The notes under the pieces were generated by a model. That model worked only from the letters and a program-made list of their open reading frames with translations. It made no database searches and was not told the origin of the DNA. From NCBI GenBank assembly GCA_037833965.1, contig AP031355.1, forward strand, positions 26,747,501-26,811,500: a stretch of 64,000 nt of DNA. The letters run 5' to 3'. Source of the DNA: Marchantia polymorpha subsp. ruderalis. Taxonomy: Eukaryota; Streptophyta; Marchantiopsida; Marchantiales; Marchantiaceae. Positions 18,416-59,645 of this stretch are shown piece by piece. Numbering within the stretch: the first letter of the stretch is position 1; every line of letters begins with the position of its first letter. Made by a program: the position numbers and the translations under genes.

Positions 18416-19349
18416 CACTAAAGGCTAAAACTGCAATATAGTGGTAGAAAGGTCGAACCCACAGGGACAGAGGAACACACAGGGTACAAAGTGTCACGTT
18501 TAACAGACTATTGAGGAGTTTGAATTCTCAAGCGACTGTCACTCCCAGAAATACTGCAAGTGTCCACTCGGAGCGCACTCGGAGGTCGCACAGTGCAGCG
18601 TAAAACACACACACACACACACACCTGAAACTACAGAAACACAACCCAGAGACCCGTTAGGACCTCTACTTAAGATTTCAGGGGGAAAGTCTCCCGCGAG
18701 CACACTCGGCAAAACTGCGGGCAGTGACTTCCAACTCCGGCTTTTACAACACTTCCACTAGCTTGCTGCTAGTGTAGGAAACCCGGTTTGGACTGCCTAC
18801 TTCGGATCGAAGTCACTCCTACGCGGTGAACAACACTCTCAACTCACAAAACGCGCAGAGAACACAGGTCCGCACTGAAGGGCTCACTGAGAAACATTCC
18901 AGTAACACAACAACAGTCTATTGAAGAGTTTGAATTCTCAGGCACTTGTCATTCCCAGAAATACTACAGGGGTTACCCTCAAGGCACCTGCTGCAGCGTA
19001 ACCTGAATTTACAACCAAGGCTTACACGAAGTAGCAAAACTTCACTTTGGCATTCAGGGGAAAAATCCCAAGGAGTACAATCAGAAAGAAACACTCGAAG
19101 GTGTAGGGGCGAAACTGTTCAAGTATCTAACTAGTCACTGGCTCTGAGCATCGGCAGTCACCCGCAGGTGCAGCTCCGAACTACTCAAGTCTCTAACCAA
19201 TGTACTAGCTCTGAACATTCGGCCGAAGGCCTTCAGCTACAAAATGCGGAGCGCTAAGTTGTAACTCCTCGTGCGTGGTGACAGAACTCAAGGACACAAA
19301 CACGCAAAGGAAATGGGTTCCTGATCTGCACTTCTGATGGGAAAGAACC

Positions 19350-19378
19350 CCAGGCAAAACGCCTGGAACTATTTTATA
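19350..19378 (-). promoter_or_regulatory. A3 LTR TATA box and foldback
   Basis: TATAAAATA on the minus strand (19378-19370) is followed by the A-version foldback at 19366-19350. Confidence 0.65.
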
Positions 19379-19414
19379 CCTTCTAAGTCCTACCTAGCAC
19401 TACACTGTACTACG

Positions 19415-22400: not shown

Positions 22401-22567
22401 AATTCCAAATCACGCGCACTCACTTCTCCCTCAATCAACAAGAAATCTCCTGTGCGACGACGTCGAGAATGTTCCGCAGCCAGCAGATGGATGCGCGCAG
22501 CGCGCACAAGAGATTGGAATCGCGAATTCAAGAATGGGACGTTCTCCGCCGCCCGGTCGAAGGTCAT
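19415..22567 (-). CDS. LTR-encoded protein, A-type, intact copy A3 in a solo LTR
   Basis: A frame of 1,050 codons with no stop or frameshift. It has the same three-part layout as A1 and differs mostly in the linker, where it has three SPVHR repeats after PVHRR and several substitutions around residues 640-710. The N-terminal domain is almost unchanged from A1. It starts 1,246 bp inside the LTR, the same spacing as in A2 and A4. As no retrotransposon internal domain remains, any expression would depend on a promoter within the LTR's upstream 1.2 kb or on flanking transcription. Confidence 0.78.
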   Translation of the reverse strand: MTFDRAAENVPFLNSRFQSLVRAARIHLLAAEHSRRRRTGDFLLIEGEVSARDLELRAIRVCRERKKRGQCGSRMSGRANPRNAMTRPSRLRMVPLRLPQNGLRAFEERLIARKLDFLLWGWNYICANMVREWLEPQGPPSRGLRPHVDRWTVQDWAQALGRCAGMPGHLLFDSESIKVTKQEEAQFVELFKTGRSTKNGYRTRDYKDRFRRTLSAALMQLLQPHRACYITLWQVSFVECVIEGTPIHWASILHRVMRQHAFEEKGGTLNHLSPFLINFYRQRNCLTAAELEHFPPLSVDHPGKYVRENEVDTDAEESPTSTPSRRRDEGRHTPAARVPRKRRWREESEEEQHQEPSAPIRPRSLCEPYSRPKQKARRLVLPADSADTATIATEIGSASPERREEARTTAGATGHAATSSGERPPTGQGPPELPRAMRTDVPFAHRRTSADGRASADRRTQVDVDLRLRVGRSSPPVHRRSPVHRSPVHRSPVHRTPPHVPPVHRQESPPFQRRKGKEPAEEPPTRHRPSGPDPPAHHAPQFAPSAPGPSSRGDTSRERAEAAPSAGSPPIDAPSAVGPIGQGTSGVRPPAMSPSAIDVRGATPAADKAPANAPTHGPGTAPADRSREQQTMERSDCPRDEISMRDAQSNPAQPPSARSPSAADDGGREDAVDHQQARDGDAARVHSPSALDILATSSEAAAVPSQAAHVDDVQPHSGQSPTQSMATEILHSDDDDGGSTEEMSGAEDTEEEEEEIVGAPAAALSEQVIPLLRYLDRKVDKYADPLQPGSYIELVRRRTRTKVHTSKLLARVDQELRDLKEKHECLWGQYKLNQKFYKHSEKMKDEKLGELTKEQVKVKEALNSEQAQNRILSEELVRQTRLLEQCQLARQADEELIRRLQSECGELRAQRAEAESQLVMIEEDRRKEADRTKVETARRVAHCLKGYAHWEVKAQEKLTLREFELRAARLLSGDSRSRRKVAKKLEAFLSKAQDTMSALEGEVSAALQRLGLRSRAEEWQGRELVRGSRPRRRRSTGSAECSVAWFRAGV

Positions 22568-23813
22568 GGTCGGCTCTTGGTCGTGAAGAACGTCTCACTT
22601 GATGGCCGCGCCGGCTGTACGCTGGAACGGTCTTCGCTCTCACGCGCGGCTTCACGCTCCGCCGTCGTCGATTAAACTCTCACGCTCGAATTGGCGGATT
22701 TGAACTCCGCGAGCGTGTCACCCTGCGGACATGGGGGCGTAGCGCCGAAGGCGAGTTTTCCGCCTTGCGCGGTACACTTGTTCGTACCGCCCCTCGGCCA
22801 ATCCCCCTTTGCCTTGACGCGTGTGTCCGCATGTCGGACAAAAATTCAACTCCTGCCTTTGCGCAGGCAGGAGCCTCGGCGGATTCTCCGCCGGCGCGGA
22901 ACTTGAACATCCTCCTGTGCACAGGCGCTCGCCTGTGCGCAGGCAAATTCCGTCCGCGGCGCTGCGCTGGCGCGGAAGGCGTTGACCGTGGTCAGCCGTC
23001 TCCGTCCAGTCTGTCCGTTCCTTGTCTCTCCGTCGGCGCTTCCGCCGCCGCAACTCCGTCCGTCCAAGAGCGCACCCACCCGTGCCGTCCGCATGGTCCG
23101 TACCGATTGGATTACTCTGGCGGCTCTTCCGACGTACGCGGCGCTGCGCTGGCGCGGAAGGCGCCGTACACTTTCTACCTCACAAGGCGCATTTCTAGGG
23201 CCCAAGGCGGATTTCCCGCCGACGCCGAAGTGCCTGTGCACAGGCGAACTCCTGTGCGTAGGCGGACTTCGCGCCTTCCCTATCCCTACTTCGCCTGTGC
23301 ACAGGCGAACGCCTTCGTCCGCGCATAGGACAAAACTTGAATCCCCCTTCCGCGTAGGCGGAATTCGCGCCGGTGGCGAACTCCTTCCGCCGTAGGCGAC
23401 CGCCTCCGTTTCTTCCAGTAGCGATAACTCCCTAAGTCCTCATCCGTTCCAAGCGTTCTTGGGCTCGTTAGAATCAGCGCGTCGAGCTCTTTCCAACGTG
23501 CCCCTAACTTGGTCAAGGCGCCCGAGGGTTTACCTAATTACGGGGGTTTCCCTACAGCCGCGGACGCAACCTCCGAAGGCGGGTTTTGCGCCTTGCGCCG
23601 TAGAGATCCTAACTGCAGAGCTCGCCGGGAGGATGGTGCCTGTCCTTACTGCGGCACCCCAAATCCCAGATTCTACAAGATCCCTCGAGAATCCCCGCGA
23701 TCTTCCGGATTCACTCTGTTTTGACGTACCGAAGGCTATTTACAATGCTGCCAGGGTATAGTTTTCCAAAAATGTTTTAATTTCCTCAAAATTGCCAAAA
23801 GTGGGGTACCACA

Positions 23814-41964: not shown

Positions 41965-43209
41965 TGTGGTACCCCACTTTTGGTAATTTTGAGGAAATTA
42001 AAACATTTTTGGAAAAAACTGTACCCTGGCAGCATTGTAAATAGCCTTCGGTACATCAAAACAGAGTGAATTCGGAAGATCGCGGGGATTCTCGAGGGAT
42101 CTTGTAGAATCTAGGATTTGGGGTGCAGCAGTAAGGATGGGCACCACCCTCCCTGCGAGCTCTGCAGTTAGGATCCCTGCGGCGCAAGGCGCAAAACCCG
42201 CCTTCGGAGGTTGCGTCCGCGGCGGTAGGGAAATCCTTCATAATTAGGTCAACCCTCGGGCGCCTTGACCGAGTTAGGGTCTCGTTGGAAAGAGCTCGAC
42301 GCACTGATTCCAACGAGTCCAAGAACGCTTGGAACGGATGAGGACTTAGGGAGTTATCACTATTGGAAGATACGTAGACGTTCGCCTTCGGCGGAAGGAG
42401 TTCGCCACCGGCGGGAATTCCGCCTACGCGGAAGGGGGATCAAGTTTTGTCCTATGCGCGGACAAAGGAAGTTCGCCTGTGCACAGGCGAAGTAGGGTTT
42501 GGGGAGGCGCGAAGTCCGCCTACGCACAGGCGAGCGCCTGTGCACAGGCGCTTCGGCGTCGGCGGAAAATCCGCCTTGGGCCCTAGAAATGCGCCTTGTG
42601 AGGTAGAAAGTGTACGGCGCCTTCTGCGCCAGTGCGGCGCCGCGGACGAGCAAGGAGCCGCCAGAGTAATCAAATCCGTACGGACCATGCGAACGGGACG
42701 GGTGGATGCGCTCTTGGACGGACGGAGTTGCGGCGGCGGAAGCGCCGACGAAGAGACAAGGAACGGACAGTCTGGACGGAGACGGCTGACCACGGTCAAC
42801 GCCTTCCGCGCCAGCGCGACGCCGCGGACGGAATTCGCCTGCGCACAGGCGAGCGCCTGTGCACAGGAGGATGAAGTTCCGCGCCGGCGGAGAATCCGCC
42901 GAGGAGTCTGCCTGCGCACAGGCAGGAGTTGAACTTTTGTCCGACATGCGGACACACGCGTCGAGGCAGAAGGGGATTGGCCGAGGGGCGGTACGAACAA
43001 GTGTACCGCGCAAGGCGGAAAACTCGCCTTCGGCGCTGCGCTCCCATGTCCGCGGGTAATACGCTCGCGGAGTTCAAATCCGCCAATTCGAGCGTGAGAG
43101 TTTAATCGGCGACGGCGGAGCGTGAAGCCGCGCGTGAGAGCGGAGACCGTTCCAGCGTAGAGCCGGCGCGGCCATCAAGTGAGACGTCCTCCACGAGCAA
43201 GAGCCGACC
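41965..43209 (+). repeat. Palindrome-rich U3 segment upstream of the A4 LTR frame
   Basis: About 1.24 kb with many short GC-rich palindromes, chiefly CGCCTGTGCACAGGCG (first at 42474-42489) and cgccgaaggcg-type units, and one foldback module at 42278-42320. Open frames occur on both strands because the palindromes avoid stops, but none is conserved in phase as a protein. No clear TATA box precedes the frame. Confidence 0.65.
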
Positions 43210-46200
43210 ATGACCTTCGACCGGGCGGCGGAGAGCGTCCCATTCTTGAATTCGCGATTCCAATCTCTTGTGCGCGCTGCGCGCGTCCATCTGCTGGCTG
43301 CTAAACATTCTCGACGTCGCCGCACAGGGGATTTCTTGGTGATTGAGGGAGAAGTGAGTGCGCGTGATTTGGAATTGAGGGCGATTAGAGTTTGCCGAGA
43401 GAGAAAGGAGCTCGAGCGGTGCGGAAGTAGGATGAGCGGGCGAGCGAACTCCAGGAACGCAATGACGAGACCGGGCAGATTGCGGATGCTGCCGCTTCGC
43501 CTACCACAGAACGGGCTGCGCGCTTTCGAGGAGCGCTTAATAGCAAGAAAGCTCGATTTCTTGCTATGGGGATGGAACTACATCTGTGCGGATATGGTGC
43601 GCGAGTGGCTAGAGCCACAGGGACCACCCTCGCGCGGATTGCGTCCGCATGTTGATCGGTGGACAGTCCAAGATTGGGCGCAGGCATTGGGAAGATGTGC
43701 CGGCATGCCAGGGCATCTCCTCTTCGACAGTGAGAGCATCAAGGTGACCAAGCAGGAAGAGGCGCAATTTGTGGAGCTGTTCAAGACCGGGAGGTCTACC
43801 AAGAATGGGTACAGGACCCGTGATTACAAGGATCGATTTCGCCGGACTTTGTCCGCGGCGCTGATGCAATTACTGCAGCCACACCGCGCCTGCTACATCA
43901 CATTGTGGCAGGTCTCTTTTGTGGAGTGCGTCATCGAGGGAACTCCAATTCACTGGGCGAGCATCCTGCACAGGGTGATGCGACAGCACGCTTTTGAGGA
44001 GAAGGGGGGAACTCTAAACCATCTCTCTCCTTTCCTCATCAATTTTTATCGACAGCGGAATTGTTTGACAGCGGCGGAGCTTGAGCATTTTCCGCCGTTG
44101 TCCGTCGACCATCCCGGGAAGTATGTGCGGGAGAATGAGGTCGACACTGATGCAGAGGAGTCACCGACTTCTACCCCATCAAGGCGGAGGGACGAAGGGA
44201 GAAACACTCCTGCAGCACGAGTGCCGCGGAAGCGGCGATGGAGAGAAGAGTCCGAAGAGGAGCAGCATCAAGAACCCTCTGCTCCCATTCGACCGCGGCC
44301 GTTATACGAGTCATACACCCGGCCGAAGCAGAAGGCACGCAGACTGGTGTTACCAACCAACAGTGCGGACACGGCGACGATTGCGACGGAGAAAGGAAGT
44401 GCGTCGCCAGAGAAGCATGAGGAAGCGCGGACGACCGCAGGAGCAACGGACCACGCTGCAGCCTCGACGGGCGAGAGGCCGCCTACGGGCCAAGGGCCTC
44501 CGGAGTTACCACGTGCGTTGCGGACAGGTGTTCCGTTTGCGCACAGACGAGACTCCGCGGACGGACGAGCCTCCGCGGACAGACGATCACAAGTGGACGT
44601 AGATCTACGCTTACGCGTGGGAAGGAGCAGTCCGCCTGTGCACAGGCGCTCGCCTGTGCACAGGTCACCTCCACACGTGCCGCCTATGCACAGGCAGGAA
44701 TCACCCCCGTTCCAACGTAGGAAGGGGAAGGAGCCGGCGGAAGAGCCGCCTATGAGACACCGGCCCTCGGGGCCAGACCCTCCGGCGCACCACGCGCCGC
44801 AATTTGCGCCTTCGGCGCCAGGGCCTTCGAGCCGAGGAGATACGAGCAGGGAGTGTGCGGAGGCCACACTATCGGCGGGTAATCCGCCGGTAGATGCGCC
44901 TTCGGCGGTAGGGCCTCAGGGCCAAGGGACATCGGGCGAGCGGCCCCCGGCCATGTCGCCTTTGGCGATGGACGTCCGCGGCGCTACGCCTGCGGCGGAC
45001 AAGGCGCCGGCATTTGCGCCTGCGCACAGGCCAAGCACAGCCCCCGCGGACCGATCAAGGGAGCAGCAACAGACGGAGGAGCGGAGTGACTGTCCGCGGG
45101 ATGAAATTTCGATGCGCGATGCGCAATCAAACCCCGCGCAGCCACCCTCCGCTCGATCGCCTTCAGCGGCGGGCGTCGGCGGCAGAGAGGACACGGTAGA
45201 CGACCAACAAGCGAGCGGCGGGGATGCCGCACGGGCACATTCGCCTACCGCCTTAGACATTTTGGCGAAGAGCAGCGAGGCTGCAGCCGTGCCTTCGCAG
45301 GCAGCACACGTCGACGACGTGCAGCCCCACTCGGGTCAGTCGCCGACGCAATCAATGGCGACTGAAATTCTCCACTCGGATGATGACGACGGAGGCTCCA
45401 CCGAAGAAATGTCAGGAGCAGGGGACACCGAGGAGGAGGAGGAGGAAATTGTTGGAGCGCCGGCGGCGGCGCTCTCTGAGCAGGTGATTCCGTTGCTGAG
45501 GTACTTGGATCGCAAAGTCGATAAATACGCCGACCCACTTCAGCCGGGATCTTACATCGAGTTAGTGCGCAGGCGGACTCGCACTAAAGTCCACACCAGC
45601 AAGCTATTAGCTAGAGTGGACCAGGAGTTGAGGGAATTGAAGGAGAAGCATGAATGCTTGTGGGGTCAGTATAAACTTAATCAGAAATTCTACAAGTACT
45701 CCGAGAAGGTGAGGGATGGGAAACTGGAAGAGCTCACCAAGGAGCAGGTGAAGGTCACAGAAGCACTAATTTCTGAGCAGGCCCAGAATCGGATTTTGTC
45801 AGAGGAGCTCGTGCGACAGACGCGGTTGTTGGAACAGTGTCAGCTCGCACGGCAGGCGGATGAGGAGGTAATCCGCAGGCTACAGTCAGAGTGTGGCGAA
45901 TTGAGAGCGCAACGTGCTGTGGCCGAATCGCAATTAGTGATAGTTGAAGAGGATCGCAGGAAGGAGGCAGATCGCACAAAGGTGGAGACGGCGAGGCGTG
46001 TCGCCCACTGTCTCAAGGGCTACGCCCACTGGGAAGTGGCGGCGCAGGAGAAACTCACACTGCGTGAGTTTGAACTTCGCGCAGCCGGGTTGTTGTCAAG
46101 CGACAGTAGGAGTCGGCGGAAGGTAGCAAAGAAGCTCGATGCTTTTCTGTCGAAGGCGCAGGATATCATGTCCGCCCTCGAAGTGGAGGTGTCCGCGGCG

Positions 46201-46335
46201 TTGCAGCGATTGGGACTGCGCAGTCGAGCGGAAGACTGGCAGGGTAGGGAGCTAGTGCGCGGCAGTCCGCCGCGCAGGAGACGTAGCACAGGTTCCGCGG
46301 AGTGTAGTGTAGCGTGGTCCCGTGCAGGCGTGTAG
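43210..46335 (+). CDS. LTR-encoded protein, A-type, intact copy in A4 5' LTR
   Basis: A frame of 1,041 codons. The conserved domain (about residues 90-315) is nearly identical to A1 and A3. Between A2 and A4, the 123 bp from 12788 and 43495 show six synonymous and one amino-acid change, which points to purifying selection on this domain. The linker has the shortest SPVHR array. The coiled coil and basic tail are complete. The stop lies 37 bp before the TATA box, so the frame fills U3 up to the promoter. Its duplicate in the 3' LTR would lie at the 3' end of the genomic RNA, after integrase. Position in U3 parallels LTR-encoded accessory genes such as MMTV sag, but function is unknown. Confidence 0.8.
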   Translation: MTFDRAAESVPFLNSRFQSLVRAARVHLLAAKHSRRRRTGDFLVIEGEVSARDLELRAIRVCRERKELERCGSRMSGRANSRNAMTRPGRLRMLPLRLPQNGLRAFEERLIARKLDFLLWGWNYICADMVREWLEPQGPPSRGLRPHVDRWTVQDWAQALGRCAGMPGHLLFDSESIKVTKQEEAQFVELFKTGRSTKNGYRTRDYKDRFRRTLSAALMQLLQPHRACYITLWQVSFVECVIEGTPIHWASILHRVMRQHAFEEKGGTLNHLSPFLINFYRQRNCLTAAELEHFPPLSVDHPGKYVRENEVDTDAEESPTSTPSRRRDEGRNTPAARVPRKRRWREESEEEQHQEPSAPIRPRPLYESYTRPKQKARRLVLPTNSADTATIATEKGSASPEKHEEARTTAGATDHAAASTGERPPTGQGPPELPRALRTGVPFAHRRDSADGRASADRRSQVDVDLRLRVGRSSPPVHRRSPVHRSPPHVPPMHRQESPPFQRRKGKEPAEEPPMRHRPSGPDPPAHHAPQFAPSAPGPSSRGDTSRECAEATLSAGNPPVDAPSAVGPQGQGTSGERPPAMSPLAMDVRGATPAADKAPAFAPAHRPSTAPADRSREQQQTEERSDCPRDEISMRDAQSNPAQPPSARSPSAAGVGGREDTVDDQQASGGDAARAHSPTALDILAKSSEAAAVPSQAAHVDDVQPHSGQSPTQSMATEILHSDDDDGGSTEEMSGAGDTEEEEEEIVGAPAAALSEQVIPLLRYLDRKVDKYADPLQPGSYIELVRRRTRTKVHTSKLLARVDQELRELKEKHECLWGQYKLNQKFYKYSEKVRDGKLEELTKEQVKVTEALISEQAQNRILSEELVRQTRLLEQCQLARQADEEVIRRLQSECGELRAQRAVAESQLVIVEEDRRKEADRTKVETARRVAHCLKGYAHWEVAAQEKLTLREFELRAAGLLSSDSRSRRKVAKKLDAFLSKAQDIMSALEVEVSAALQRLGLRSRAEDWQGRELVRGSPPRRRRSTGSAECSVAWSRAGV

Positions 46336-46371
46336 CATAGTGCAGTGTAGTGTTAGGTAGGACTTAGAAGG

Positions 46372-46400
46372 TATAAAATAGTTCCAGGCGTTTTGCCTGG
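46372..46400 (+). promoter_or_regulatory. A4 5' LTR TATA box and foldback
   Basis: TATAAAATA at 46372-46380 and CCAGGCGTTTTGCCTGG at 46384-46400. Transcription should start about 30 bp after the TATA box, near 46402-46410, just past the foldback. This sets the approximate U3/R boundary. Confidence 0.7.
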
Positions 46401-46916
46401 GGTTCTTTCCCATCAGAAGTGCAGATCAGGAACCCATTTCCTTTGCGTGTTTGTGTCCTTGAGTTCTGTCACCACGCACGAGGAGTTACAACTTAGCGTT
46501 CCGCATTTTGTAGCTGAAGGCCTTCGGCCGAATGTTCAGAGCTAGTACATTGGTTAGAGACTTGAGTAGTTCGGATCTGCACCTGCGGGTGACTGCCGAT
46601 GCTCAGAGCCAGTGACTAGTTAGATACTTGAACAGTTTCGCCCCTACACCTTCGAGTGTTTCTTTCTGATTGTACTCCTTTGGGATTTTTCCCCTGAATG
46701 CCAAAGTGAAGTTTTGCTACTTCGTGTAAGCCTTGGTTGTAAATTCAGGTTACGCTGCAGCAGGTGCCTTGAGGGTAACCCCTGTAGTATTTCTGGGAAT
46801 GACAAGTGCCTGAGAATTCAAACTCTTCAATAGACTGTTGTTGTGTTACTGGAATGTTTCACAGTGAGTCCTTCAGTGCGGACCTGTGTTCTCTGCACGT
46901 TTTGTGAGTTGAGAGT

Positions 46917-46973
46917 GTTGTTCACCGCGTCTGAGTGACTTCGATCCGAAGTCACTCAGACGCGGTGAACAAC
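46917..46973. repeat. 27-bp perfect inverted duplication in A4 U5
   Basis: Arms 46917-46943 and 46947-46973 are exact reverse complements with a 3-base spacer. Other A-type copies have only the left arm and continue differently. The second arm plus a short repeat of gcggtga looks like a templated inversion. Confidence 0.9.
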
Positions 46974-47397
46974 GCGGTGAAGTAGGTAGTCCAAACCGGG
47001 TTTCCTACACTAGCAGCAAGCTAGTGGAAGCGTTGTAAAAGCCGGAGTTGGGAGTCACTACCCGCAGCTTCGCTGAGTGTACTCTCGAGAGACTTTCCCC
47101 CCCTGAAATCTTGAGTAGAGGTCCTAACGGATCTCTGAGTTGTGTTTCTGTAGTTTCAGGTGTGTGTGTGTGTGTGTTACGCTGCACTGTGCGACCTCCG
47201 AGTGCGCTCCGAGTGGACACTTGCAGTATTTCTGGGAGTGACAGTTGCCTGAGAATTCAAACTCCTCAATAGTCTGTTAAAACGTGACACTTTGTACCCT
47301 GTGTGTTCCTCTGTCCCTGTGGGTTCGACCTTTCTACCACTATATTGCAGTTTTAGCCTTTAGTGGGTTATTACATAAGAAGCCGACAACTTCTTTT

Positions 47398-47415
47398 TGG
47401 CGCCGCTGCCGGGGA
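47398..47415 (+). other. A4 primer binding site, tRNA-Asp type
   Basis: TGGCGCCGCTGCCGGGGA matches the tRNA-Asp-type primer site used by many plant gypsy elements, with one base differing from the common form. It begins 22 bases after the LTR end, further than usual, and the gap holds a small agaag/cttct foldback. Confidence 0.8.
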
Positions 47416-47461
47416 CAGTTGCGTCAACACCGGGGTTTTTACGAGCAGCCATGCTCGGTGA

Positions 47462-50281
47462 ATGTCGACTGGAGCTAGCGGGAGCAACCTAAGCGCGAGA
47501 GCTGTCCGCAGGATCCGACGAGATTCAGAGAAGGCCGTGGAAGAGACACGGCGTCAAAACAAGAAAACACCAAAAAGAGTACCTAAGCCTAGTTCGGCCG
47601 ACATCCTTGGGGAACCTACCCCCGGCGACTCGGAACCAAACTTGGTGCTTATAGTTCTACTAGATATTCCTTGCACGGACCCTCCTCGTGATTTAGAAAC
47701 GACCGCCCGAGAACCGTCCACAGACACACCGATGGCGGACGGACAAGCCAATGTGCGGCTACCTCAGCCGATTACTAAACATTCCTACCCAAAGTATAAA
47801 GGGAGTGGGGATGACGACGATGCAGATTCATACATCAAGTTGTTCGAATCGGTGTCTATTGCCAATTGCGAGATCGCAGACGACGACCGACTAAGGATCT
47901 TTCCAAGCCTTCTGCGGAAGAAAGCGAGGAGTTGGTACAATCACGAGAGCATCGATCCGACTGGGTTGACAACATGGGCCCAGCTGAAGGAGAAGTTCCT
48001 TCGCCGCTTCCGCGAGCTCGGCTACGACAGTCGGGTATTGACAAAGTTACGTAATTTGCAGCGAGAGAAGAAGGAGAGTCTGCGTGACTACACTGAGAGA
48101 TTTCTGGACCTCCTTGACAGAATACCGAAAACAGGACCAGGGTCCCCTTTCTCGGTACAACAAGCTGTGGATTGGTACGTGACCGGCTTAACTCGGGAGA
48201 TGGAGACTTTTTGCCGACGCAGCAAGTGCGACACTATTGAGGATGTGATTGCATCGGCAGAAGCCTTCGAAACTTCCACTCTCAACCGAAGAGGGAGAGA
48301 GAAACGGGAGTCAAAGGAGCGAAAACCGAAGGGAGGGCGAAGACGACGTAGAGGTACAACTCCGTCATCGGAAGAATCGTCTTCGGACGAGAACCGTTCC
48401 TCATCCGAAGAAGAGGAAACCTCATCGTCGGAGGAGGAGAAGAAGAGGAAGAAGCATGGGGCAGCGAAGAAGAAGGGCACCCGACGAGTGACTACGGACA
48501 GAGCGCCGGGAGACATAGCCTCGAAGATGGAGACCCTTGTGAAGGACTTCGCCGACCTCAAGGTTCAAGTGGTAGGCGGTCATGATCGCCGAAAATCATC
48601 CGGGAGAGTGCGAGCGAACTTATGGTGCACTACGTGCGGAGCGGTGGGACATGCAAACACCGAGTGCCTTACCACCCGTCCGTCATATCCAGTCAACGCA
48701 GTAGAGTGGGCACAACCGTACTATGGAGAGCACCCCCAGTACTATGGAGAGGCTAGCGAAGAGACAGCCTACGCCGTCCAGTCGGTTCCCACCCCTACTG
48801 CAGTTTCAGCAATGCAAGTCCCACGATATCATCCGGTGGATCGGGCCACTACAGTACCCGTGAGGCGGAGAGCACCTCCAGGGACGTTTGACCCACCGCC
48901 ACCGCGAGCTTGTTATAATTGCGGGGAAGTTGGACACTTCTCACCGCAGTGCCCCCATCCAAAAAGGCGAAACGATTATGTTCCGACATGTAGTAATTGC
49001 AAGAAGACCGGGCATACTGCGCCAGAGTGTGATCAGCCACCAGTTCCTCGGCCATCGGTACGATTTGTGACCCCTCCTGCCAAGGAGGACGTCCAAGTTA
49101 ACCAGGTCGAAGTAGGTTCAGACGGGGATGATGAAGACGAAGAATGGCCGGCGGAAGAGGTTATGTGCGCACGGGTCGAAACTCGTAGTTCCAAGAAATC
49201 GAAGGAGCAAGAGCGTGACACTCGCAAGCACGAACGGAGAACCGACGACCGGACGGGAAAAGGGAAGGAGAAGACATCCAGCAAGTCCGACTTGCGACCT
49301 GCACGGAAGTCTTCGGTTACGCGAGAGGCACCAGCAGTGCGCCCCCAGACAGCAGTCGAGGATGAGCCAGTACGCTTGCTGAAACGGGACTATGCTCCGG
49401 ATATCCGCAACGAGGTAACCAACCTGTTGAAGGAAGCGATCCGCACTCAAAAGGACCCACCGCGGCCAGACTTGCCATCCTTCCTTGGGGCGAAGTTGGC
49501 AGCCACCGTGGAACCTCGCAGGGCGTCGCCGCCGACCCCGGCGACCCAACGCGTCCACTATGACTTGGTCGAAGATCTCGGGAGTCGGAAAGTGAACATC
49601 ACGTTCAAGCAGCTCCTTGAGGACAACAAGACGTATCGAAGGATGTTGATGCTTTCGCTACGACGTCCGCGGAAGCCGCGCGCATCCACATCCTCTCAAG
49701 TGTATCAAGTGGCCAGCGAAGACCAAGGGCCACCAGAGATCGATGTGGAAATAGCAGGGTGTTGTGTACGCAGGGTACCAATCGACTCTGGATCAGGAGT
49801 CAACATAATGACGGAGGACACCGCGAGAGCCTTGGGGTTCAGTCAATACGAACCCTCGAAGCGTGTGTTGAGATTAGCGGATCAGACGCGGAGAATGCCT
49901 GCAGGTATGCTGCGCAATGTCAAAACAATCATCGGTGGTGCGGACTTTCGGTTGACGTATATCATCCTTCAACCGATGATGAAGCAGGGCTATGACGTTC
50001 TGCTCGGGCGACCATGGCTATATGGCGCACAAGTCAGATGTGATTGGCGAAGGCATCGCCTTAAGTTTCCCCATCCTTCGGAACCGACCAAGAGCATTAC
50101 GGTGCCCTGGAATAGGGTCAGACACGAAGGAGAGACCCCATCGACAAGTGCAGGTTACACATCGGGCGGGGACAGTGAGTCGACCGCGCGATCGGATTCC
50201 AGTGGTACCGAATCCGATTATTTCGTGGGATTCGTTGCCTGCTGTTCGGTGGGAGAAGAAGAAGAGCCGGAAGCTATTTAG
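47462..50281 (+). CDS. A4 Gag-protease polyprotein
   Basis: 939 codons. Basic N-terminus, then a capsid-like gag region (about residues 110-280) with ARSWYNHE and WAQLKEKFLRRF, typical of the retrotransposon gag domain. Next is a Ser/Glu and Lys/Arg-rich stretch, then three CCHC knuckles, CTTCGAVGHANTEC near 387, CYNCGEVGHFSPQC near 482 and CSNCKKTGHTAPEC near 509. The aspartic protease has IDSGSGVNIM near 774 and DVLLGRPWLYG near 846. It ends at TAG 50279-50281. RT follows in the same phase after a second TAG. No frameshift or internal stop is seen, so this part looks functional. Confidence 0.92.
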   Translation: MSTGASGSNLSARAVRRIRRDSEKAVEETRRQNKKTPKRVPKPSSADILGEPTPGDSEPNLVLIVLLDIPCTDPPRDLETTAREPSTDTPMADGQANVRLPQPITKHSYPKYKGSGDDDDADSYIKLFESVSIANCEIADDDRLRIFPSLLRKKARSWYNHESIDPTGLTTWAQLKEKFLRRFRELGYDSRVLTKLRNLQREKKESLRDYTERFLDLLDRIPKTGPGSPFSVQQAVDWYVTGLTREMETFCRRSKCDTIEDVIASAEAFETSTLNRRGREKRESKERKPKGGRRRRRGTTPSSEESSSDENRSSSEEEETSSSEEEKKRKKHGAAKKKGTRRVTTDRAPGDIASKMETLVKDFADLKVQVVGGHDRRKSSGRVRANLWCTTCGAVGHANTECLTTRPSYPVNAVEWAQPYYGEHPQYYGEASEETAYAVQSVPTPTAVSAMQVPRYHPVDRATTVPVRRRAPPGTFDPPPPRACYNCGEVGHFSPQCPHPKRRNDYVPTCSNCKKTGHTAPECDQPPVPRPSVRFVTPPAKEDVQVNQVEVGSDGDDEDEEWPAEEVMCARVETRSSKKSKEQERDTRKHERRTDDRTGKGKEKTSSKSDLRPARKSSVTREAPAVRPQTAVEDEPVRLLKRDYAPDIRNEVTNLLKEAIRTQKDPPRPDLPSFLGAKLAATVEPRRASPPTPATQRVHYDLVEDLGSRKVNITFKQLLEDNKTYRRMLMLSLRRPRKPRASTSSQVYQVASEDQGPPEIDVEIAGCCVRRVPIDSGSGVNIMTEDTARALGFSQYEPSKRVLRLADQTRRMPAGMLRNVKTIIGGADFRLTYIILQPMMKQGYDVLLGRPWLYGAQVRCDWRRHRLKFPHPSEPTKSITVPWNRVRHEGETPSTSAGYTSGGDSESTARSDSSGTESDYFVGFVACCSVGEEEEPEAI

Positions 50282-50302
50282 CCGGAAGACGAATAGCAAT
50301 TA
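50279..50302 (+). promoter_or_regulatory. Two in-phase stops between gag-pro and pol; second in readthrough context
   Basis: TAG at 50279-50281 and TAG at 50294-50296 lie in the same phase as both gag-pro and RT. The second is followed by CAA TTA, exactly the tobamovirus-type leaky context (UAG CAR YYA). An agccggaag repeat before and after the first stop suggests that the first arose by a short duplication. Function is inferred. Confidence 0.55.
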
Positions 50303-51880
50303 ACGGTGGGACTGGGAAGGAGTGAGACGAGTCACACCGAGGGCATTGTCGACCCTAGTGACTGTCACGAAGTACAACTCAGTCCCGACAAGTGCTTGAA
50401 GGTATCAAGCACAGTGAGAGGAGACGAGCTAAGGAACGTACAGGCATTCCTTAGCCATTATGTCGACGTCTTCGCCTGGAAGATCGAAGACATGAAGGGG
50501 ATACCTGCCTGGTATGGGAAACACCGTATCGATTTACTGGACGACTCAGTACCCATACGACAGCGCCAGTATCGCCTCAACCCAAAATACTCCTTGCTAG
50601 TTAAGGAGGAGATAGATAAGTACTTGAGTGCTGGTATTATTTACCCAGTGCTCAGCAGTGAATGGGTGTCGCCGATTGTTATCGTACCCAAGAAGTTGAC
50701 GGGTAAGATACGAGTGTGTCAGGATTTCCGGAAGTTGAATGCAGCAACACGCAAGGATCATCACCCGTTGCCGTTCACGGATGCCATTCTAGACCATGTC
50801 GCAGGACATGAATGCTATAGCTTCCTGGACGGGTTCTCAGGTTACAATCAGGTGTCTATCCGGGAACAGGACAAGGATAAAACTACGTTCACAACCGACT
50901 GGGGAACTTACGCATACCACAAGATGCCCTTCGGTCTGTGCAACGCGCCTGCCACCTTTCAACGGATGATGACCAATATCTTCCAGGAGCAAGTGAGGAA
51001 GTTCCTGGAAATATTCATAGATGACTTCTGTGTCTTTGGGAAGCGGTCTGAACACCTAAGTCACTTGAAGCAGACCTTCGATAAATGTAGAGAGAGCAGT
51101 TTATCGCTGCATCCCGAGAAGTGCTTTTTCTTTATGACTAGTGGGATCTTGTTGGGTCATCGGGTCTCGGCAGACGGCATTGCGGTGGACATCGAGAAGG
51201 TCAAGGTTATACTCGAGCTTGAGCCACCCACGAATCTAAGAGAGCTGCGAGCATTCCTGGGTCATGTGGGCTACTACCGAAAATTCATACACCTGTATGC
51301 AATACTGGCGGCGGACCTGACCAAGTTGTTGAAGAAGGACGAGCCTTATGCCTGGGGTGCGAACCAGCAGTCAGCATTTGAGGCTCTTAAAGCGAAACTC
51401 ACGACTGCTCCCGTGCTAAGGAGTCCAGACTGGAATCGACCATTCCATGTTTACGTTGACACATCTGCATTCGCCATCGGTGTAGTACTGAGTCAAAAGG
51501 ATGACAACAAAAAGGACTACCCGATCTATTTCGCGAGCCGACAGCTGTCTCTAGCAGAGCGGAAGTACACCACGACGGAGAGAGAAGCGTTGGGGATGGT
51601 GTACTCCTGTAAAAAGTTCCGTCACTACCTAATCTGCTACGAGTTTGTGTTCCATGTGGACCACTACGCATTGCAACACCTAGTCAAGAAAGCCGACCTA
51701 TCCGGTCGGATCGCCAGGTGGGTGCTGTTGCTACAAGAGTTCACCTACACAGTCCAGACCAGGAAAGGGGTGCACCACGAAAATGCGGATTACTTGTCCC
51801 GATTATGGACCCAGCCGACAGAGGAGGAATTGGTGGACGATTTTCCAGATGGAGTTATTTCAGTTGTCTGCGGGGCATGA
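50297..51880 (+). CDS. A4 reverse transcriptase and RNase H
   Basis: Open in the gag-pro phase from the codon after the second TAG to TGA at 51878-51880. There is no ATG at the head; the first possible in-phase initiator is GTG 50306, so it is probably made as a readthrough or spliced fusion. RT blocks are WVSPIVIVPKK, FRKLNAATRKDHHPLPF, YSFLDGFSGYNQ, MPFGLCNAPATFQRM and the catalytic FIDDF. RNase H shows FHVYVDTSAFAIG, TEREALGMVY and HENADYLSRL. All expected catalytic blocks are intact. The last codons (from about DFPDG) run into the wrong phase relative to integrase. Confidence 0.9.
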   Translation, partial: QLTVGLGRSETSHTEGIVDPSDCHEVQLSPDKCLKVSSTVRGDELRNVQAFLSHYVDVFAWKIEDMKGIPAWYGKHRIDLLDDSVPIRQRQYRLNPKYSLLVKEEIDKYLSAGIIYPVLSSEWVSPIVIVPKKLTGKIRVCQDFRKLNAATRKDHHPLPFTDAILDHVAGHECYSFLDGFSGYNQVSIREQDKDKTTFTTDWGTYAYHKMPFGLCNAPATFQRMMTNIFQEQVRKFLEIFIDDFCVFGKRSEHLSHLKQTFDKCRESSLSLHPEKCFFFMTSGILLGHRVSADGIAVDIEKVKVILELEPPTNLRELRAFLGHVGYYRKFIHLYAILAADLTKLLKKDEPYAWGANQQSAFEALKAKLTTAPVLRSPDWNRPFHVYVDTSAFAIGVVLSQKDDNKKDYPIYFASRQLSLAERKYTTTEREALGMVYSCKKFRHYLICYEFVFHVDHYALQHLVKKADLSGRIARWVLLLQEFTYTVQTRKGVHHENADYLSRLWTQPTEEELVDDFPDGVISVVCGA

Positions 51881-53135
51881 GTCCCGCTATGCCGACCTGT
51901 ATCGATATCTGCTAACCCTTCAGTGTCCCGTAGGCATGGATTTGGAACAGCGAACTGTCTTTATTCATAAGGCAGGCCCGTACCAACTCCAGCAGGGGGT
52001 TTTGTTCAAAAAGATGGCAGATGAGCGCTTATGCAGATGCCTGGAGGAATCAGAGGTACCAAGAATAGTGAGTTCGATGCATACAGAGGAGGCGGGTGGA
52101 CACTATGCCACCAGGAACACGGTCACAAAGATTCTAAATGCGGGGTATTGGTGGCCGACCATGTTTAAGGATGTTCCCGATTACATCCGCAAGTGCGACA
52201 GTTGCCAGAGGACGGGGAGACCAACGCCTACAACACGCTGGCCCCTGACTCCCATCATGCCTCTAGCACCTTTCGAAAAGTGGGGCATTGACTTTGTAGG
52301 GCCGATACAACCAATGACTAGAAGCACACGAAGGCGCTACATTCTGGTAGCAACGGACTACGCCACCAAAATGGTGGAGGCCAGGGCCACCAGAAGGGAT
52401 GATGCTGCCACAGTGGTAGCCTTCTTGTTTGAGTCGATTATCACACGCTACGGATGTCCCTTAGAGCTAGTCAGCGACCGGGGCACGCATTTTCTAAATC
52501 AGATCATCGAAGATCTGACACGGTATTTCCACATCAAGCACCGGAAGACTACTCCATACAATCCCAAGGCGAATGGACTGACGGAGAAGTCCAATGGTCT
52601 GCTGTGTAAAATACTACTCAAGGTCACGGTGAATCACGCTCACGACTGGGATACGAAGCTAGCAGCCGCTCTATGGGCGTACCGGACAGCTGAGAAGATC
52701 ACGACCAAACAGACACCATACTTTCTGGTGTATGGGCAACACCCGATCCTCCCGATCGAGTTTGAAGTACCCACCCAACGAACGTTGGATTTGCAGAGGA
52801 TGGGCGCAGAGGAGAGTCAGCTCTACAGGTTACAGGAGGTCACGCTGCTGGATGAGAGGAGACGAGACGCCGAAGATCGCACCAGGAAAATCCAGCTCCG
52901 CCGGAAGGAGAGATACGATAAAAAGATCAAACCTGTACTCCTGCAGGCGGGTGATTTGGCATTGCTCTACGACAGCAGGCATGCCAGATTCCCAGGCAAA
53001 CTGCACCTAAGATGGATGGGACCTTACAGGGTTGTCGAAGTCTTCTCGAATGGGTCCATCCAACTTGCGGACCTGGCCGGCGATTTGTTAGGCACCCGAG
53101 TGAACGGGTGGCGGTTGAAGAAATACCACATGTGA
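51783..53135 (+). CDS. A4 integrase, in +1 phase
   Basis: Overlaps the RT-RNase H frame by 98 bp in the +1 phase. Homology to gypsy pol starts at about ELFQLSAGHESRYADLYRYL (51850), so the ATG at 51783 is probably not used. Zinc region: H-x-H in MHTEEAGGHYA and CDSCQ. Catalytic core: KWGIDFVGPI, SDRGTHF and NGLTEKSNGLL supply D, D and E. The C-terminus GPYRVVEVFSNGSIQL ends at WRLKKYHM without a chromodomain. Either a programmed +1 shift or a small indel near 51850 separates it from RT. The stop lies 37 bp before the 3' LTR. Confidence 0.88.
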   Translation: MRITCPDYGPSRQRRNWWTIFQMELFQLSAGHESRYADLYRYLLTLQCPVGMDLEQRTVFIHKAGPYQLQQGVLFKKMADERLCRCLEESEVPRIVSSMHTEEAGGHYATRNTVTKILNAGYWWPTMFKDVPDYIRKCDSCQRTGRPTPTTRWPLTPIMPLAPFEKWGIDFVGPIQPMTRSTRRRYILVATDYATKMVEARATRRDDAATVVAFLFESIITRYGCPLELVSDRGTHFLNQIIEDLTRYFHIKHRKTTPYNPKANGLTEKSNGLLCKILLKVTVNHAHDWDTKLAAALWAYRTAEKITTKQTPYFLVYGQHPILPIEFEVPTQRTLDLQRMGAEESQLYRLQEVTLLDERRRDAEDRTRKIQLRRKERYDKKIKPVLLQAGDLALLYDSRHARFPGKLHLRWMGPYRVVEVFSNGSIQLADLAGDLLGTRVNGWRLKKYHM

Positions 53136-53158
53136 GTGTTCGCGTGGGCGCTCACAAT

Positions 53159-53172
53159 TGAGGAGGGGAGCA
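53159..53172 (+). other. A4 polypurine tract
   Basis: tgaggaggggagca directly precedes the TGTGG start of the 3' LTR. Purine-rich, in the position expected for plus-strand priming. Confidence 0.8.
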
Positions 53173-56100
53173 TGTGGTACCCCACTTTTGGTAATTTTGA
53201 GGAAATTAAAACATTTTTGGAAAAAACTGTACCCTGGCAGCATTGTAAATAGCCTTCGGTACATCAAAACAGAGTGAATCCGGAAGATCGCGGGGATTCT
53301 CGAGGGATCTTGTAGAATCTAGGATTTGGGGTGCAGCAGTAAGGATGGGCACCACCCTCCCTGCGAGCTCTGCAGTTAGGATCCCTGCGGCGCAAGGCGC
53401 AAAACCCGCCTTCGGAGGTTGCGTCCGCGGCGGTAGGGAAATCCTTCATAATTAGGTCAACCCTCGGGCGCCTTGACCGAGTTAGGGTCTCGTTGGAAAG
53501 AGCTCGACGCACTGATTCCAACGAGTCCAAGAACGCTTGGAACGGATGAGGACTTAGGGAGTTATCACTATTGGAAGATACGTAGACGTTCGCCTTCGGC
53601 GGAAGGAGTTCGCCACCGGCGGGAATTCCGCCTACGCGGAAGGGGGATCAAGTTTTGTCCTATGCGCGGACGAAGGAAGTTCGCCTGTGCACAGGCGAAG
53701 TAGGGTTTGGGGAGGCGCGAAGTCCGCCTACGCACAGGCGAGCGCCTGTGCACAGGCGCTTCGGCGTCGGCGGAAAATCCGCCTTGGGCCCTAGAAATGC
53801 GCCTTGTGAGGTAGAAAGTGTACGGCGCCTTCTGCGCCAGCGCGGCGCCGCGGACGAGCAAGGAGCCGCCAGAGTAATCAAATCCGTACGGACCATGCGG
53901 ACGGGACGGGTGGATGCGCTCTTGGACGGACGGAGTTGCGGCGGCGGAAGCGCCGACGAAGAGACAAGGAACGGACAGTCTGGACGGAGACGGCTGACCA
54001 CGGTCAACGCCTTCCGCGCCAGCGCGACGCCGCGGACGGAATTCGCCTGTGCACAGGAGGATGAAGTTCCGCGCCGGCGGAGAATCCGCCGAGGAGTCTG
54101 CCTGCGCACAGGCAGGAGTTGAACTTTTGTCCGACATGCGGACACACGCGTCGAGGCAGAAGGGGATTGGCCGAGGGGCGGTACGAACAAGTGTACCGCG
54201 CAAGGCGGAAAACTCGCCTTCGGCGCTGCGCTCCCATGTCCGCGGGTAATACGCTCGCGGAGTTCAAATCCGCCAATTCGAGCGTGAGAGTTTAATCGGC
54301 GACGGCGGAGCGTGAAGCCGCGCGTGAGAGCGGAGACCGTTCCAGCGTAGAGCCGGCGCGGCCATCAAGTGAGACGTCCTCCACGAGCAAGAGCCGACCA
54401 TGACCTTCGACCGGGCGGCGGAGAGCGTCCCATTCTTGAATTCGCGATTCCAATCTCTTGTGCGCGCTGCGCGCGTCCATCTGCTGGCTGCTAAACATTC
54501 TCGACGTCGCCGCACAGGGGATTTCTTGGTGATTGAGGGAGAAGTGAGTGCGCGTGATTTGGAATTGAGGGCGATTAGAGTTTGCCGAGAGAGAAAGGAG
54601 CTCGAGCGGTGCGGAAGTAGGATGAGCGGGCGAGCGAACTCCAGGAACGCAATGACGAGACCGGGCAGATTGCGGATGCTGCCGCTTCGCCTACCACAGA
54701 ACGGGCTGCGCGCTTTCGAGGAGCGCTTAATAGCAAGAAAGCTCGATTTCTTGCTATGGGGATGGAACTACATCTGTGCGGATATGGTGCGCGAGTGGCT
54801 AGAGCCACAGGGACCACCCTCGCGCGGATTGCGTCCGCATGTTGATCGGTGGACAGTCCAAGATTGGGCGCAGGCATTGGGAAGATGTGCCGGCATGCCA
54901 GGGCATCTCCTCTTCGACAGTGAGAGCATCAAGGTGACCAAGCAGGAAGAGGCGCAATTTGTGGAGCTGTTCAAGACCGGGAGGTCTACCAAGAATGGGT
55001 ACAGGACCCGTGATTACAAGGATCGATTTCGCCGGACTTTGTCCGCGGCGCTGATGCAATTACTGCAGCCACACCGCGCCTGCTACATCACATTGTGGCA
55101 GGTCTCTTTTGTGGAGTGCGTCATCGAGGGAACTCCAATTCACTGGGCGAGCATCCTGCACAGGGTGATGCGACAGCACGCTTTTGAGGAGAAGGGGGGA
55201 ACTCTAAACCATCTCTCTCCTTTCCTCATCAATTTTTATCGACAGCGGAATTGTTTGACAGCGGCGGAGCTTGAGCATTTTCCGCCGTTGTCCGTCGACC
55301 ATCCCGGGAAGTATGTGCGGGAGAATGAGGTCGACACTGATGCAGAGGAGTCACCGACTTCTACCCCATCAAGGCGGAGGGACGAAGGGAGAAACACTCC
55401 TGCAGCACGAGTGCCGCGGAAGCGGCGATGGAGAGAAGAGTCCGAAGAGGAGCAGCATCAAGAACCCTCTGCTCCCATTCGACCGCGGCCGTTGTACGAG
55501 TCATACACCCGGCCGAAGCAGAAGGCACGCAGACTGGTGTTACCAACCAACAGTGCGGACACGGCGACGATTGCGACGGAGAAAGGAAGTGCGTCGCCAG
55601 AGAAGCATGAGGAAGCGCGGACGACCGCAGGAGCAACGGACCACGCTGCAGCCTCGACGGGCGAGAGGCCGCCTACGGGCCAAGGGCCTCCGGAGTTACC
55701 ACGTGCGTTGCGGACAGGTGTTCCGTTTGCGCACAGACGAGACTCCGCGGACGGACGAGCCTCCGCGGACAGACGATCACAAGTGGACGTAGATCTACGC
55801 TTACGCGTGGGAAGGAGCAGTCCGCCTGTGCACAGGCGCTCGCCTGTGCACAGGCGCTCGCCTGTGCACAGGTCACCTCCACACGTGCCGCCTATGCACA
55901 GGCAGGAATCACCCCCGTTCCAACGTAGGAAGGGGAAGGAGCCGGCGGAAGAGCCGCCTATGAGACACCGGCCCTCGGGGCCAGACCCTCCGGCGCACCA
56001 CGCGCCGCAATTTGCGCCTTCGGCGCCAGGGCCTTCGAGCCGAGGAGATACGAGCAGGGAGTGTGCGGAGGCCACACTATCGGCGGGTAATCCGCCGGTA

Positions 56101-56567
56101 GATGCGCCTTCGGCGGTAGGGCCTCAGGGCCAAGGGACATCGGGCGAGCGGCCCCCGGCCATGTCGCCTTTGGCGATGGACGTCCGCGGCGCTACGCCTG
56201 CGGCGGACAAGGCGCCGGCATTTGCGCCTGCGCACAGGCCAAGCACAGCCCCCGCAGACCGATCAAGGGAGCAGCAACAGACGGAGGAGCGGAGTGACTG
56301 TCCGCGGGATGAAATTTCGATGCGCGATGCGCAATCAAACCCCGCGCAGCCACCCTCCGCTCGATCGCCTTCAGCGGCGGGCGTCGGCGGCAGAGAGGAC
56401 ACGGTAGACGACCAACAAGCGAGCGGCGGGGATGCCGCACGGGCACATTCGCCTACCGCCTTAGACATTTTGGCGAAGAGCAGCGAGGCTGCAGCCGTGC
56501 CTTCGCAGGCAGCACACGTCGACGACGTGCAGCCCCACTCGGGTCAGTCGCCGACGCAATCAATGGC
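53173..56567 (+). repeat. A4 3' LTR, truncated (3,395 of about 5,411 bp)
   Basis: Matches the 5' LTR almost perfectly from TGTGGTACC to caatcaatggc at 56567, where unrelated AT-rich DNA starts. The end of the frame, the TATA box, R and U5 are missing, so the element lacks its normal 3' processing signals. Confidence 0.95.
54400..56567 (+). pseudogene. LTR-encoded protein, A-type, truncated copy in A4 3' LTR
   Basis: Identical in layout to the 5' LTR frame to about codon 722, then cut at the LTR breakpoint. The phase stays open through 23 foreign codons to a TGA at 56635-56637. The conserved domain is complete; the coiled coil is lost. It has one SPVHR-type unit more than the 5' LTR copy of the same element. 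Confidence 0.9.

Positions 56568-58396: not shown

Positions 58397-59645
<1,249 letters not shown>

What the first reader, a model, noticed from the sequence alone, without database searches (positions are those of the whole stretch)
41965..56567. An LTR retrotransposon whose U3 region encodes a protein of about 1,040 residues
Seen directly: the ends TGTGGTACCCC...GGGTTATTACA, a primer site after the left LTR, a polypurine tract before the right LTR, and near-identical LTRs that both carry the same large frame. The frame ends 37 bp before the LTR TATA box. Established: most plant LTRs carry only regulatory DNA, while U3-encoded accessory genes are known from MMTV (sag). Inference: the frame is an accessory gene copied into both LTRs at each replication cycle, expressible from the 3' LTR part of the RNA or from a separate U3 promoter. 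This is the best candidate here for an undescribed system.
Basis: partly seen in the sequence, partly recalled or inferred. Interest (0 to 1): 0.93.

Follow-up and report, generated by a model that had tools for sequence, protein, structure and literature searches.

The report
Retrotransposon gene inside its terminal repeats
An abundant jumping element in what is very probably the liverwort Marchantia carries a large protein gene, kept intact by natural selection, inside the long repeats at its ends, a place where plant elements are normally thought to hold only regulatory DNA.

Summary
The left LTR is 41965-47375 (5,411 bp) and holds a 1,041-codon frame (43210-46335) ending 36 bp before the TATA box. 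The right LTR starts at 53173 but is truncated at 56567 inside the frame; the GGGTTATTACA end belongs to the left LTR only. The LTR is genuinely that long: 2 solo copies in the window and 8 of 20 sampled genomic loci are complete solo LTRs with perfect 5-bp target duplications, and 6 of those 8 keep the frame open. The frame is a real gene: pooled pN/pS over 12 open copies is 0.11 in residues 82-320 and 0.33 overall, and a second subfamily (about 48% protein identity) carries the homologous frame in its LTR. The element is Ty3/gypsy, without chromodomain, with a tRNA-Asp primer site. The one review I read (two of three parts) puts extra plant ORFs in the internal region. Best reading: a U3-encoded accessory gene, used from the 3' LTR part of the RNA. 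Expression is untested and biochemical function is a guess (soluble regulator or cofactor). New variant of a known kind.

The parts
41965..47375 (+). Left LTR, 5,411 bp, TG...CA
   Evidence: seven other places in the window align to its last base; solo copies with 5-bp target duplications
43210..46335 (+). U3-encoded frame, 1,041 codons: N-terminal part, conserved core about 85-320, Pro/Ser/Arg-rich 321-740, charged heptad-like stretch within 741-1003, basic tail
46372..46380 (+). TATA box (TATAAAATA), likely promoter core of the genomic RNA
47376..47397 (+). 22-nt spacer between LTR end and PBS
47398..47415 (+). Primer binding site, complementary to tRNA-Asp(GTC) 3' end
47462..50281 (+). Gag with zinc knuckles and aspartic protease, 939 aa
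   Evidence: Pfam Retrotrans_gag, zf-CCHC (two stretches), Ty3_capsid over their cut-offs; Asp_protease_2 E 7.9e-5, just under its cut-off
50306..51880 (+). Reverse transcriptase and RNase H frame
   Evidence: Pfam RVT_1, RT_RNaseH, RT_RNaseH_2
51783..53135 (+). Integrase frame, no chromodomain hit
   Evidence: Pfam Integrase_H2C2, rve
53160..53172 (+). Polypurine tract
   Evidence: Read from sequence; similar tract before the LTR in L012, L013, L028
53173..56567 (+). Right LTR, truncated at its 3' side inside the frame
54400..56565 (+). Right-LTR copy of the frame, first 722 codons only
11255..16690 (+). Solo LTR of the same family, target duplication AGTTA, frame broken
18406..23813 (-). Solo LTR of the same family, target duplication AGGTG, frame 19415-22567 open (1,050 aa)
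842..3979 (-). Open 1,045-codon copy of the frame in an LTR that starts at 5220 and runs off the window
5223..7595 (+). Homologous frame of the second subfamily (F type), cut at its start by the insertion at 5220

Best explanation
This is a chromodomain-less Ty3/gypsy retrotransposon whose U3 region contains a protein-coding accessory gene of about 850-1,050 codons. Because the polypurine tract lies upstream of the gene, each round of reverse transcription copies the gene into both LTRs (established mechanism applied here). The copy that the element can use is the one in the 3' LTR, which lies downstream of pol in the genomic RNA, the position of env or 3' accessory ORFs in other elements; a spliced or subgenomic mRNA, or a U3 promoter, would make it translatable (inferred). 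The protein is selected as part of the replicating element (shown: low pN/pS, third-position bias, conservation across subfamilies). It has a conserved core of about 235 residues, a Pro/Ser/Arg-rich linker, a heptad-like charged part and basic tracts; I think it most likely acts in the nucleus or in the particle as a cofactor or regulator of the element, for example on RNA handling, import of the pre-integration complex, or silencing (guess, roughly 50% for 'regulator or cofactor acting on the element').
For: LTR unit proven by target duplications: 2 in the window, 8 in the C2 sample. Frame open in 8 of 11 end-to-end LTRs of that sample, and without stops in 30 of the 44 scored best matches genome-wide, own copy included, of 12,958 first-look candidates (best matches only, so biased to young copies). 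Pooled pN/pS over 12 open copies: 0.53 (1-81), 0.11 (82-320), 0.47 (321-740), 0.29 (741-1000), 0.35 (1001-1041), 0.33 overall. Variants shared by two or more of 11 copies: 0.06 in 82-320; singletons 0.18. Core substitutions by codon position, e.g. 4/0/16 (B) and 4/0/21 (L029). F subfamily: 47-53% identity with saturated dS; F-type solo LTR of 4,873 bp in L014 (4184-9056 of its reverse complement) with CCATG duplication and an open 851-codon frame; 29 of 57 scored genomic F copies, own copy included, without stops. Both LTRs of one element with open frame (L012, L013).
Against: No expression data. No known domain and both structure predictions failed (mean pLDDT 44.1 and 36.5), so the function is a guess. 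Copies used for pN/pS were chosen for open frames. In the two copies closest to the focal one the third-position bias of the core is absent (L023 4/0/3, L032 4/1/3) and the overall ratio is higher (0.61 and 0.43), as expected if the gene is not selected after insertion. Residues 1-81 are weakly constrained and the first ATG of the F-type frame is at the equivalent of residue 85, so the true start is uncertain.
Confidence: 0.72

Rival explanations
1. Envelope-like gene: the frame is the plant counterpart of env, which came to lie inside the LTR when a new polypurine tract arose upstream of it.
For: Position downstream of pol on the RNA; integrase stop and LTR start are only 37 bp apart with no other frame between. 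PMC7264820 (parts 1-2 of 3 read) describes sense ORFs between pol and 3' LTR as env-like.
Against: No membrane-spanning stretch: highest 19-residue mean hydropathy is 1.14.
Confidence: 0.08
2. The gene works mainly in trans from dispersed solo LTRs as well as from full elements, either helping elements (anti-silencing) or restraining them (copy-number control).
For: Open frames in 6 of 8 sampled solo LTRs; LTR-LTR recombination deletes gag-pol but leaves this gene, which it would not do for an internal ORF.
Against: Ratio rises among the closest pairs and for singletons, so selection after insertion is not shown; no promoter upstream of the frame identified. Solo LTRs were not counted genome-wide: 3,078 exact LTR-start words against 1,365 LTR-end/internal junctions with up to 2 mismatches is a ratio near the 2:1 of complete elements.
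Confidence: 0.17
3. The frame is a passive open stretch in GC-rich DNA, or a captured host fragment without function.
For: U3 is about 60% GC and also holds other 161-217-codon frames on both strands.
Against: Core pN/pS 0.11, third-position bias in 9 of 11 copies compared, homologous frame in a diverged subfamily. Random placement of all observed substitutions keeps the frame open with probability 0.0057 or less for 9 of 11 copies (0.25 and 0.08 for the two closest); with half of them placed, 0.0025-0.08 for those nine and 0.50 and 0.29 for the two (copies were chosen open, so this alone proves little).
Confidence: 0.02
4. The LTR is short and the frame is internal, or the long repeat is an assembly or nesting artefact.
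For: The region is a nest of insertions and the right LTR is truncated.
Against: Complete solo LTRs of 5.3-5.4 kb with perfect 5-bp duplications at 10 loci seen (2, 8).
Confidence: 0.01

Closest known systems
Extra ORFs (aORF/eORF) of plant Ty3/gypsy elements: Grande gene23, RIRE2, Retand ORF4, Athila ORF, Tekay 5'aORF
   Same: Additional conserved gene beside gag-pol in a plant Ty3/gypsy element, without clear homologues; Grande's product is nuclear (PMC7264820, parts 1-2 of 3 read), the sunflower Tekay one is mostly disordered with helices and a nuclear signal (PMC11728184, passages)
   Different: Those described lie in the internal region, upstream of gag or between pol and the 3' LTR, sense or antisense; here the gene lies wholly inside U3 and so exists in both LTRs and in solo LTRs
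MMTV sag, and lentiviral nef and foamy virus bel genes (recalled; only a search listing was seen)
   Same: Accessory protein encoded wholly or partly in the U3 part of the LTR, downstream of the other genes on the RNA (recalled)
   Different: Animal retroviruses; sequence relation not tested; the proteins are much shorter (recalled)
Athila and other OTA non-chromoviruses (PMC6317226, section 9 and passages)
   Same: No chromodomain; extra ORF present; tRNA-Asp primer typical of some of them (recalled)
   Different: Lineage not tested by a tree; gene position differs; no hit to the domains that PMC6317226 names for their extra ORFs (Athila ORF-1, plant mobile domain, Transposase_28)
Rice Retrosat2 (PMC3485330, passages)
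   Same: Long LTRs above 3.2 kb and an extra ORF of unknown function
   Different: ORF0 lies upstream of the gag-pol ORF and is treated apart from the LTR in the passages seen

Membership tests
Ty3/gypsy LTR retrotransposon | gag, protease, RT, RNase H, integrase in this order between LTRs | tested here: met
   Pfam hits in three frames 47462-53135; the protease hit lies just under its curated cut-off
Ty3/gypsy LTR retrotransposon | LTRs with TG...CA, PBS, PPT and 5-bp target duplication | tested here: met
   the duplication of the focal element itself cannot be tested, its right end is lost
Chromovirus branch | Chromodomain after integrase | tested here: not met
   No chromodomain hit at E up to 0.1
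OTA superclade (Athila/Tat) | Place in RT/RH/INT trees | not tested
   No reference set at hand; lack of chromodomain and the tRNA-Asp primer are compatible only
Plant aORF/eORF as described | Extra ORF in the internal region | tested here: not met
   Frame lies inside the LTR
Athila ORF-1, plant mobile domain, Transposase_28, Transposase_32 families | Match to the Pfam model | tested here: not met
   hmmscan of two whole frames (E up to 0.1) and of five core and C-terminal pieces (E up to 10) listed none of these; the PF20167 genome search was silent, but so were its controls
Env-like protein | Transmembrane segment | tested here: not met
   Maximum 19-residue mean hydropathy 1.14
U3-encoded accessory gene (MMTV sag type, by layout only) | Complete reading frame inside U3, under coding constraint | tested here: met
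U3-encoded accessory gene (MMTV sag type, by layout only) | mRNA and protein made from the 3' LTR | not testable with these tools
   No RNA or peptide data

The most novel reading that the evidence does not exclude
LTRs of this family are mobile genes in their own right: by placing a trans-acting regulator in U3, the element makes its gene survive the LTR-LTR recombination that removes gag-pol, so that dispersed solo LTRs, which outlive the elements, keep supplying (or diluting) a protein that controls silencing or copy number of the whole family.
Probability: 0.17. Interest if true: 0.88.

Novelty: new variant of a known kind. Interest (0 to 1): 0.72.

Why it matters
Plant LTRs are treated as regulatory DNA in annotation and in LTR-based classification. 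A selected gene of about 1,000 codons inside U3 means that LTR length, solo-LTR persistence and U3 evolution can be driven by protein function, and that solo LTRs can stay coding after the element is gone. If the genome is Marchantia polymorpha, expression and function can be tested at once in a model plant for which full-length RNA data exist.

Tried and rejected
Protein homology search in the large database: switched off, not repeated; so relatives in other species were never seen. Pfam gave no accepted match for the frame (the F-type C-terminal piece had nine weak hits such as betaPIX_CC at E 0.029 and CENPH at 0.86, all below cut-off, and the F core two), PDB sequences none, viral contigs none (one search did not run). 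Two AlphaFold jobs on the core with five window sequences each gave mean pLDDT 44.1 and 36.5, so no fold search was made. I recalled a likeness of the core to the Pfam 'putative plant transposon protein' domain (PF20167); the tests were negative or silent, so it is dropped. I suspected that some 3' ends keep the 22-nt spacer; of seven such junctions fetched, six show the spacer followed by the PBS or the PBS with one change and one (L038) by an inverted internal end, so this was rejected. L012's LTR is followed by 18 nt of the spacer and then other DNA; unexplained, perhaps a deletion in a tandem copy. A genome-wide integrase count was asked for twice and never answered. I looked for a splice site: an AG after a T/G-rich run precedes the first F-type ATG, a hint only. 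The ten paper searches (open-licence PMC only) listed no paper whose title or shown abstract start reports a plant LTR-encoded gene of this kind; this is not proof that none is in print. An earlier count gave 31 of 44 copies without stops; the recount is 30 of 44.
Full report
WHAT IS THERE. The left LTR runs from 41965 to 47375 (5,411 bp). It begins TGTGGTACCCC and ends GGGTTATTACA; seven other places in the window align to its last base. Inside it the frame 43210-46335 codes for 1,041 residues; an in-frame stop lies at 43180, so the ATG at 43210 is the first ATG of that open stretch. The stop is 36 bp before TATAAAATA at 46372. The internal region has gag with zinc knuckles and aspartic protease (47462-50281), RT and RNase H (50306-51880) and integrase (51783-53135). 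The PBS at 47398 matches the last 18 nt, CCA included, of the genome's tRNA-Asp: 29 genomic sites carry the matching T-arm/acceptor word, and 2 of 2 fetched are tRNA-Asp(GTC) by ARAGORN. The right LTR starts at 53173 after a purine tract and is cut at 56567, where it has reached left-LTR position 45359.

THE LTR REALLY IS THAT LONG. In the window, 11255-16690 and 18406-23813 are complete copies of the LTR without an internal region, flanked by AGTTA/AGTTA and AGGTG/AGGTG; both interrupt relatives of the same LTR. I then fetched 20 loci on contig C2: of the 34 LTR-start words listed for C2 among the first 100 of the genome I took the first 21 except one that falls inside L022. Of 20, 2 (L015, L018) are unrelated; 18 match the LTR; 11 match it end to end; 8 of these 11 are solo LTRs with a perfect 5-bp duplication (L016, L020, L021, L023, L026, L027, L029, L030). 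Of the other 3, L013 and L012 are two LTRs around one internal region, though L013 is itself preceded by an internal-region end, so this looks like a tandem arrangement; L028 follows a purine tract. The remaining 7 related loci are truncated, nested or rearranged. L031/L032 on C1 is another LTR-internal-LTR; its LTRs differ at 193 of 5,334 positions and its flanks do not match, which suggests recombination between elements; its 3' LTR frame is open (1,029 codons), its 5' one broken.

THE FRAME IS A GENE. In the C2 sample the frame is open over at least 1,020 codons in 8 of 11 end-to-end LTRs (broken in L021, L028, L030), and in 6 of the 8 solo LTRs. In a genome-wide search 12,958 candidates were seen at first look, 44 were scored, and 30 of those 44 (own copy included) have no stop (the scored set is the best-matching one). 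Over 12 open copies, all 66 pairs pooled, pN/pS is 0.53 for residues 1-81, 0.11 for 82-320, 0.47 for 321-740, 0.29 for 741-1000, 0.35 for 1001-1041 and 0.33 overall; pairs are not independent. These copies were chosen for being open, which excludes nonsense changes but does not by itself lower the missense ratio. With L013 dropped as the partner of L012, variants shared by at least two of 11 copies have a ratio of 0.06 in the core (24 synonymous, 5 not) and singletons 0.18 (52 and 32). Substitutions against the focal core are mostly at the third position in 9 of 11 copies, for example 4/0/16 for B and 16/12/40 for L016; the two closest copies do not show it (L023 4/0/3, L032 4/1/3). Placing all observed substitutions at random on the focal frame leaves it open with probability at most 0.0057 for 9 of 11 copies, 0.25 for L023 and 0.08 for L032; placing half of them gives 0.0025-0.08 for the nine and 0.50 and 0.29 for the two. 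As these copies were picked for being open, the simulation is weaker support than the ratio.

A SECOND SUBFAMILY HAS THE SAME LAYOUT. F-type frames in the window are 47-53% identical to the focal protein in the aligned parts, with synonymous sites saturated, so their dN/dS (0.18-0.21 where computable) is only indicative. In the reverse complement of L014, 4184-9056 is an F-type solo LTR of 4,873 bp with the duplication CCATG and an open 851-codon frame whose first ATG is at the equivalent of focal residue 85, with 35 more open codons upstream of it. Genome-wide, 57 of 13,384 F candidates were scored and 29 of 57 (own copy included) have no stop; many lie in open stretches of 952 codons, so F frames too may be read further upstream. 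A different Ty3 element in the window (LTRs 31502-32030 and 38496-39024, 529 bp, 99.2% identical; RT about 50% identical to the focal RT) has short LTRs without room for such a gene, so the trait is not general.

ABUNDANCE. The exact LTR-start word occurs 3,078 times against 92 for the reversed control word; the LTR-end plus 18 nt of spacer occurs 1,365 times with up to 2 mismatches, control 0. PMC9985172 (passages) counts 222 full-length LTR elements in an M. polymorpha assembly; my words count pieces, not full elements, and include tandem arrays. The genome-wide share of solo LTRs was not measured; on the first 14 Mb of C2 they prevail in the sample.

WHICH GENOME. The held genome has 241,466,482 bases in 9 contigs and a 5,591,195-bp contig C1. 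PMC13078153 (passages) gives in its Table 1 241,484,302 bp in 9 sequences for Marchantia polymorpha Tak-2 ver. 7.1 (its Table 2 rounds Tak-1 to 241 and Tak-2 to 242 Mb, which disagrees), with a 5.6-Mb chrU carrying a triplicated repeat in its middle; words on C1 recur about 406 and 343-353 kb apart.

HOW IT LIKELY WORKS. Shown: gene in U3, selection, presence in both LTRs of an element and in solo LTRs. Established mechanism applied: U3 begins at the polypurine tract, so anything between that tract and R is copied to both LTRs in each cycle, and the LTR pair starts out identical (6 of 3,377 and 9 of 5,360 differences in two pairs). Inferred: the used copy is the 3' one, downstream of pol on the RNA, expressed by splicing or from a U3 promoter. 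The protein has no membrane segment, a Pro/Ser-rich middle, heptad-like stretches at 888-1003 (also, with lower claim, at 24-81) and basic runs; no Pfam or PDB relative. By analogy with nuclear aORF proteins reviewed in PMC7264820 (parts 1-2 of 3 read), I favour a nuclear or particle-associated cofactor or regulator. Function is therefore a guess, and confidence applies mainly to architecture and selection.

COMPARISON WITH WHAT IS KNOWN. PMC7264820 describes extra ORFs in the internal region, most often between pol and the 3' LTR; PMC6317226 (passages and section 9) names plant mobile domain, Transposase_28 and Athila ORF-1 domains in such ORFs; PMC11728184 (passages) sorts them into 5' and 3' types by position relative to gag-pol; PMC3485330 (passages) states that LTRs, unlike internal regions, do not code for replication enzymes. 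None of the text I read puts an extra gene in a plant LTR. MMTV sag is the recalled parallel. The searches made cover only open-licence papers.

LIMITS. Sampling is small and partly biased to good copies. Expression is untested. The start codon is uncertain between residues 1 and 85.

Noticed in passing
G000:C2:31351104-31384684 and G000:C3:20847426-20880730: LTR-end/spacer junctions recur at exactly 11,184 bp (C2, four junctions) and 11,092 bp (C3, four junctions), about one LTR plus one internal region: tandem arrays of this element (same C2 spacing for the PBS word).
   Followed up: partly
window 47376-47397: The PBS lies 22 nt inside the LTR end, with a short inverted repeat (AAGAAG...CTTCTT) in the spacer. 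The LTR end with the first 18 nt of the spacer occurs 1,365 times in the genome (up to 2 mismatches); of 11 junctions read, 9 show the PBS, in places with one change, 22-23 nt in. Integration at the LTR end would have to trim this spacer from the cDNA.
   Followed up: partly
window 41965-47375 versus L012, L020, L026, L027, L029: R-U5 is 1.6-2.1% diverged while U3 upstream of the frame is 5.8-6.4% diverged between the focal LTR and these five copies (L016 4.7 and 12.1%; not so in the closest copy L023, 1.8 and 1.0%), as if U3 and R-U5 had different histories.
   Followed up: no
window 1-31500: A nest of LTRs of at least two subfamilies inserted into one another, several times within each other's U3 frame.
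   Followed up: partly
window 31502-39024: A Ty3 element with 529-bp LTRs (99.2% identical) and a 1,503-codon gag-pol frame, a short-LTR contrast to the focal family.
   Followed up: partly
L038 (G000:C2:14725780-14726010): After the LTR end and spacer the sequence turns into an inverted internal-region end with purine tract.
   Followed up: no
window 40185-41150: Four imperfect copies of a 148-nt repeat; 40682-40875 matches the LTR upstream of the frame in inverted orientation at 90%.
   Followed up: no
window 58693-59538, minus strand: Frame that reads like a fragment of a plant class III peroxidase (recalled motif, no search made).
   Followed up: no
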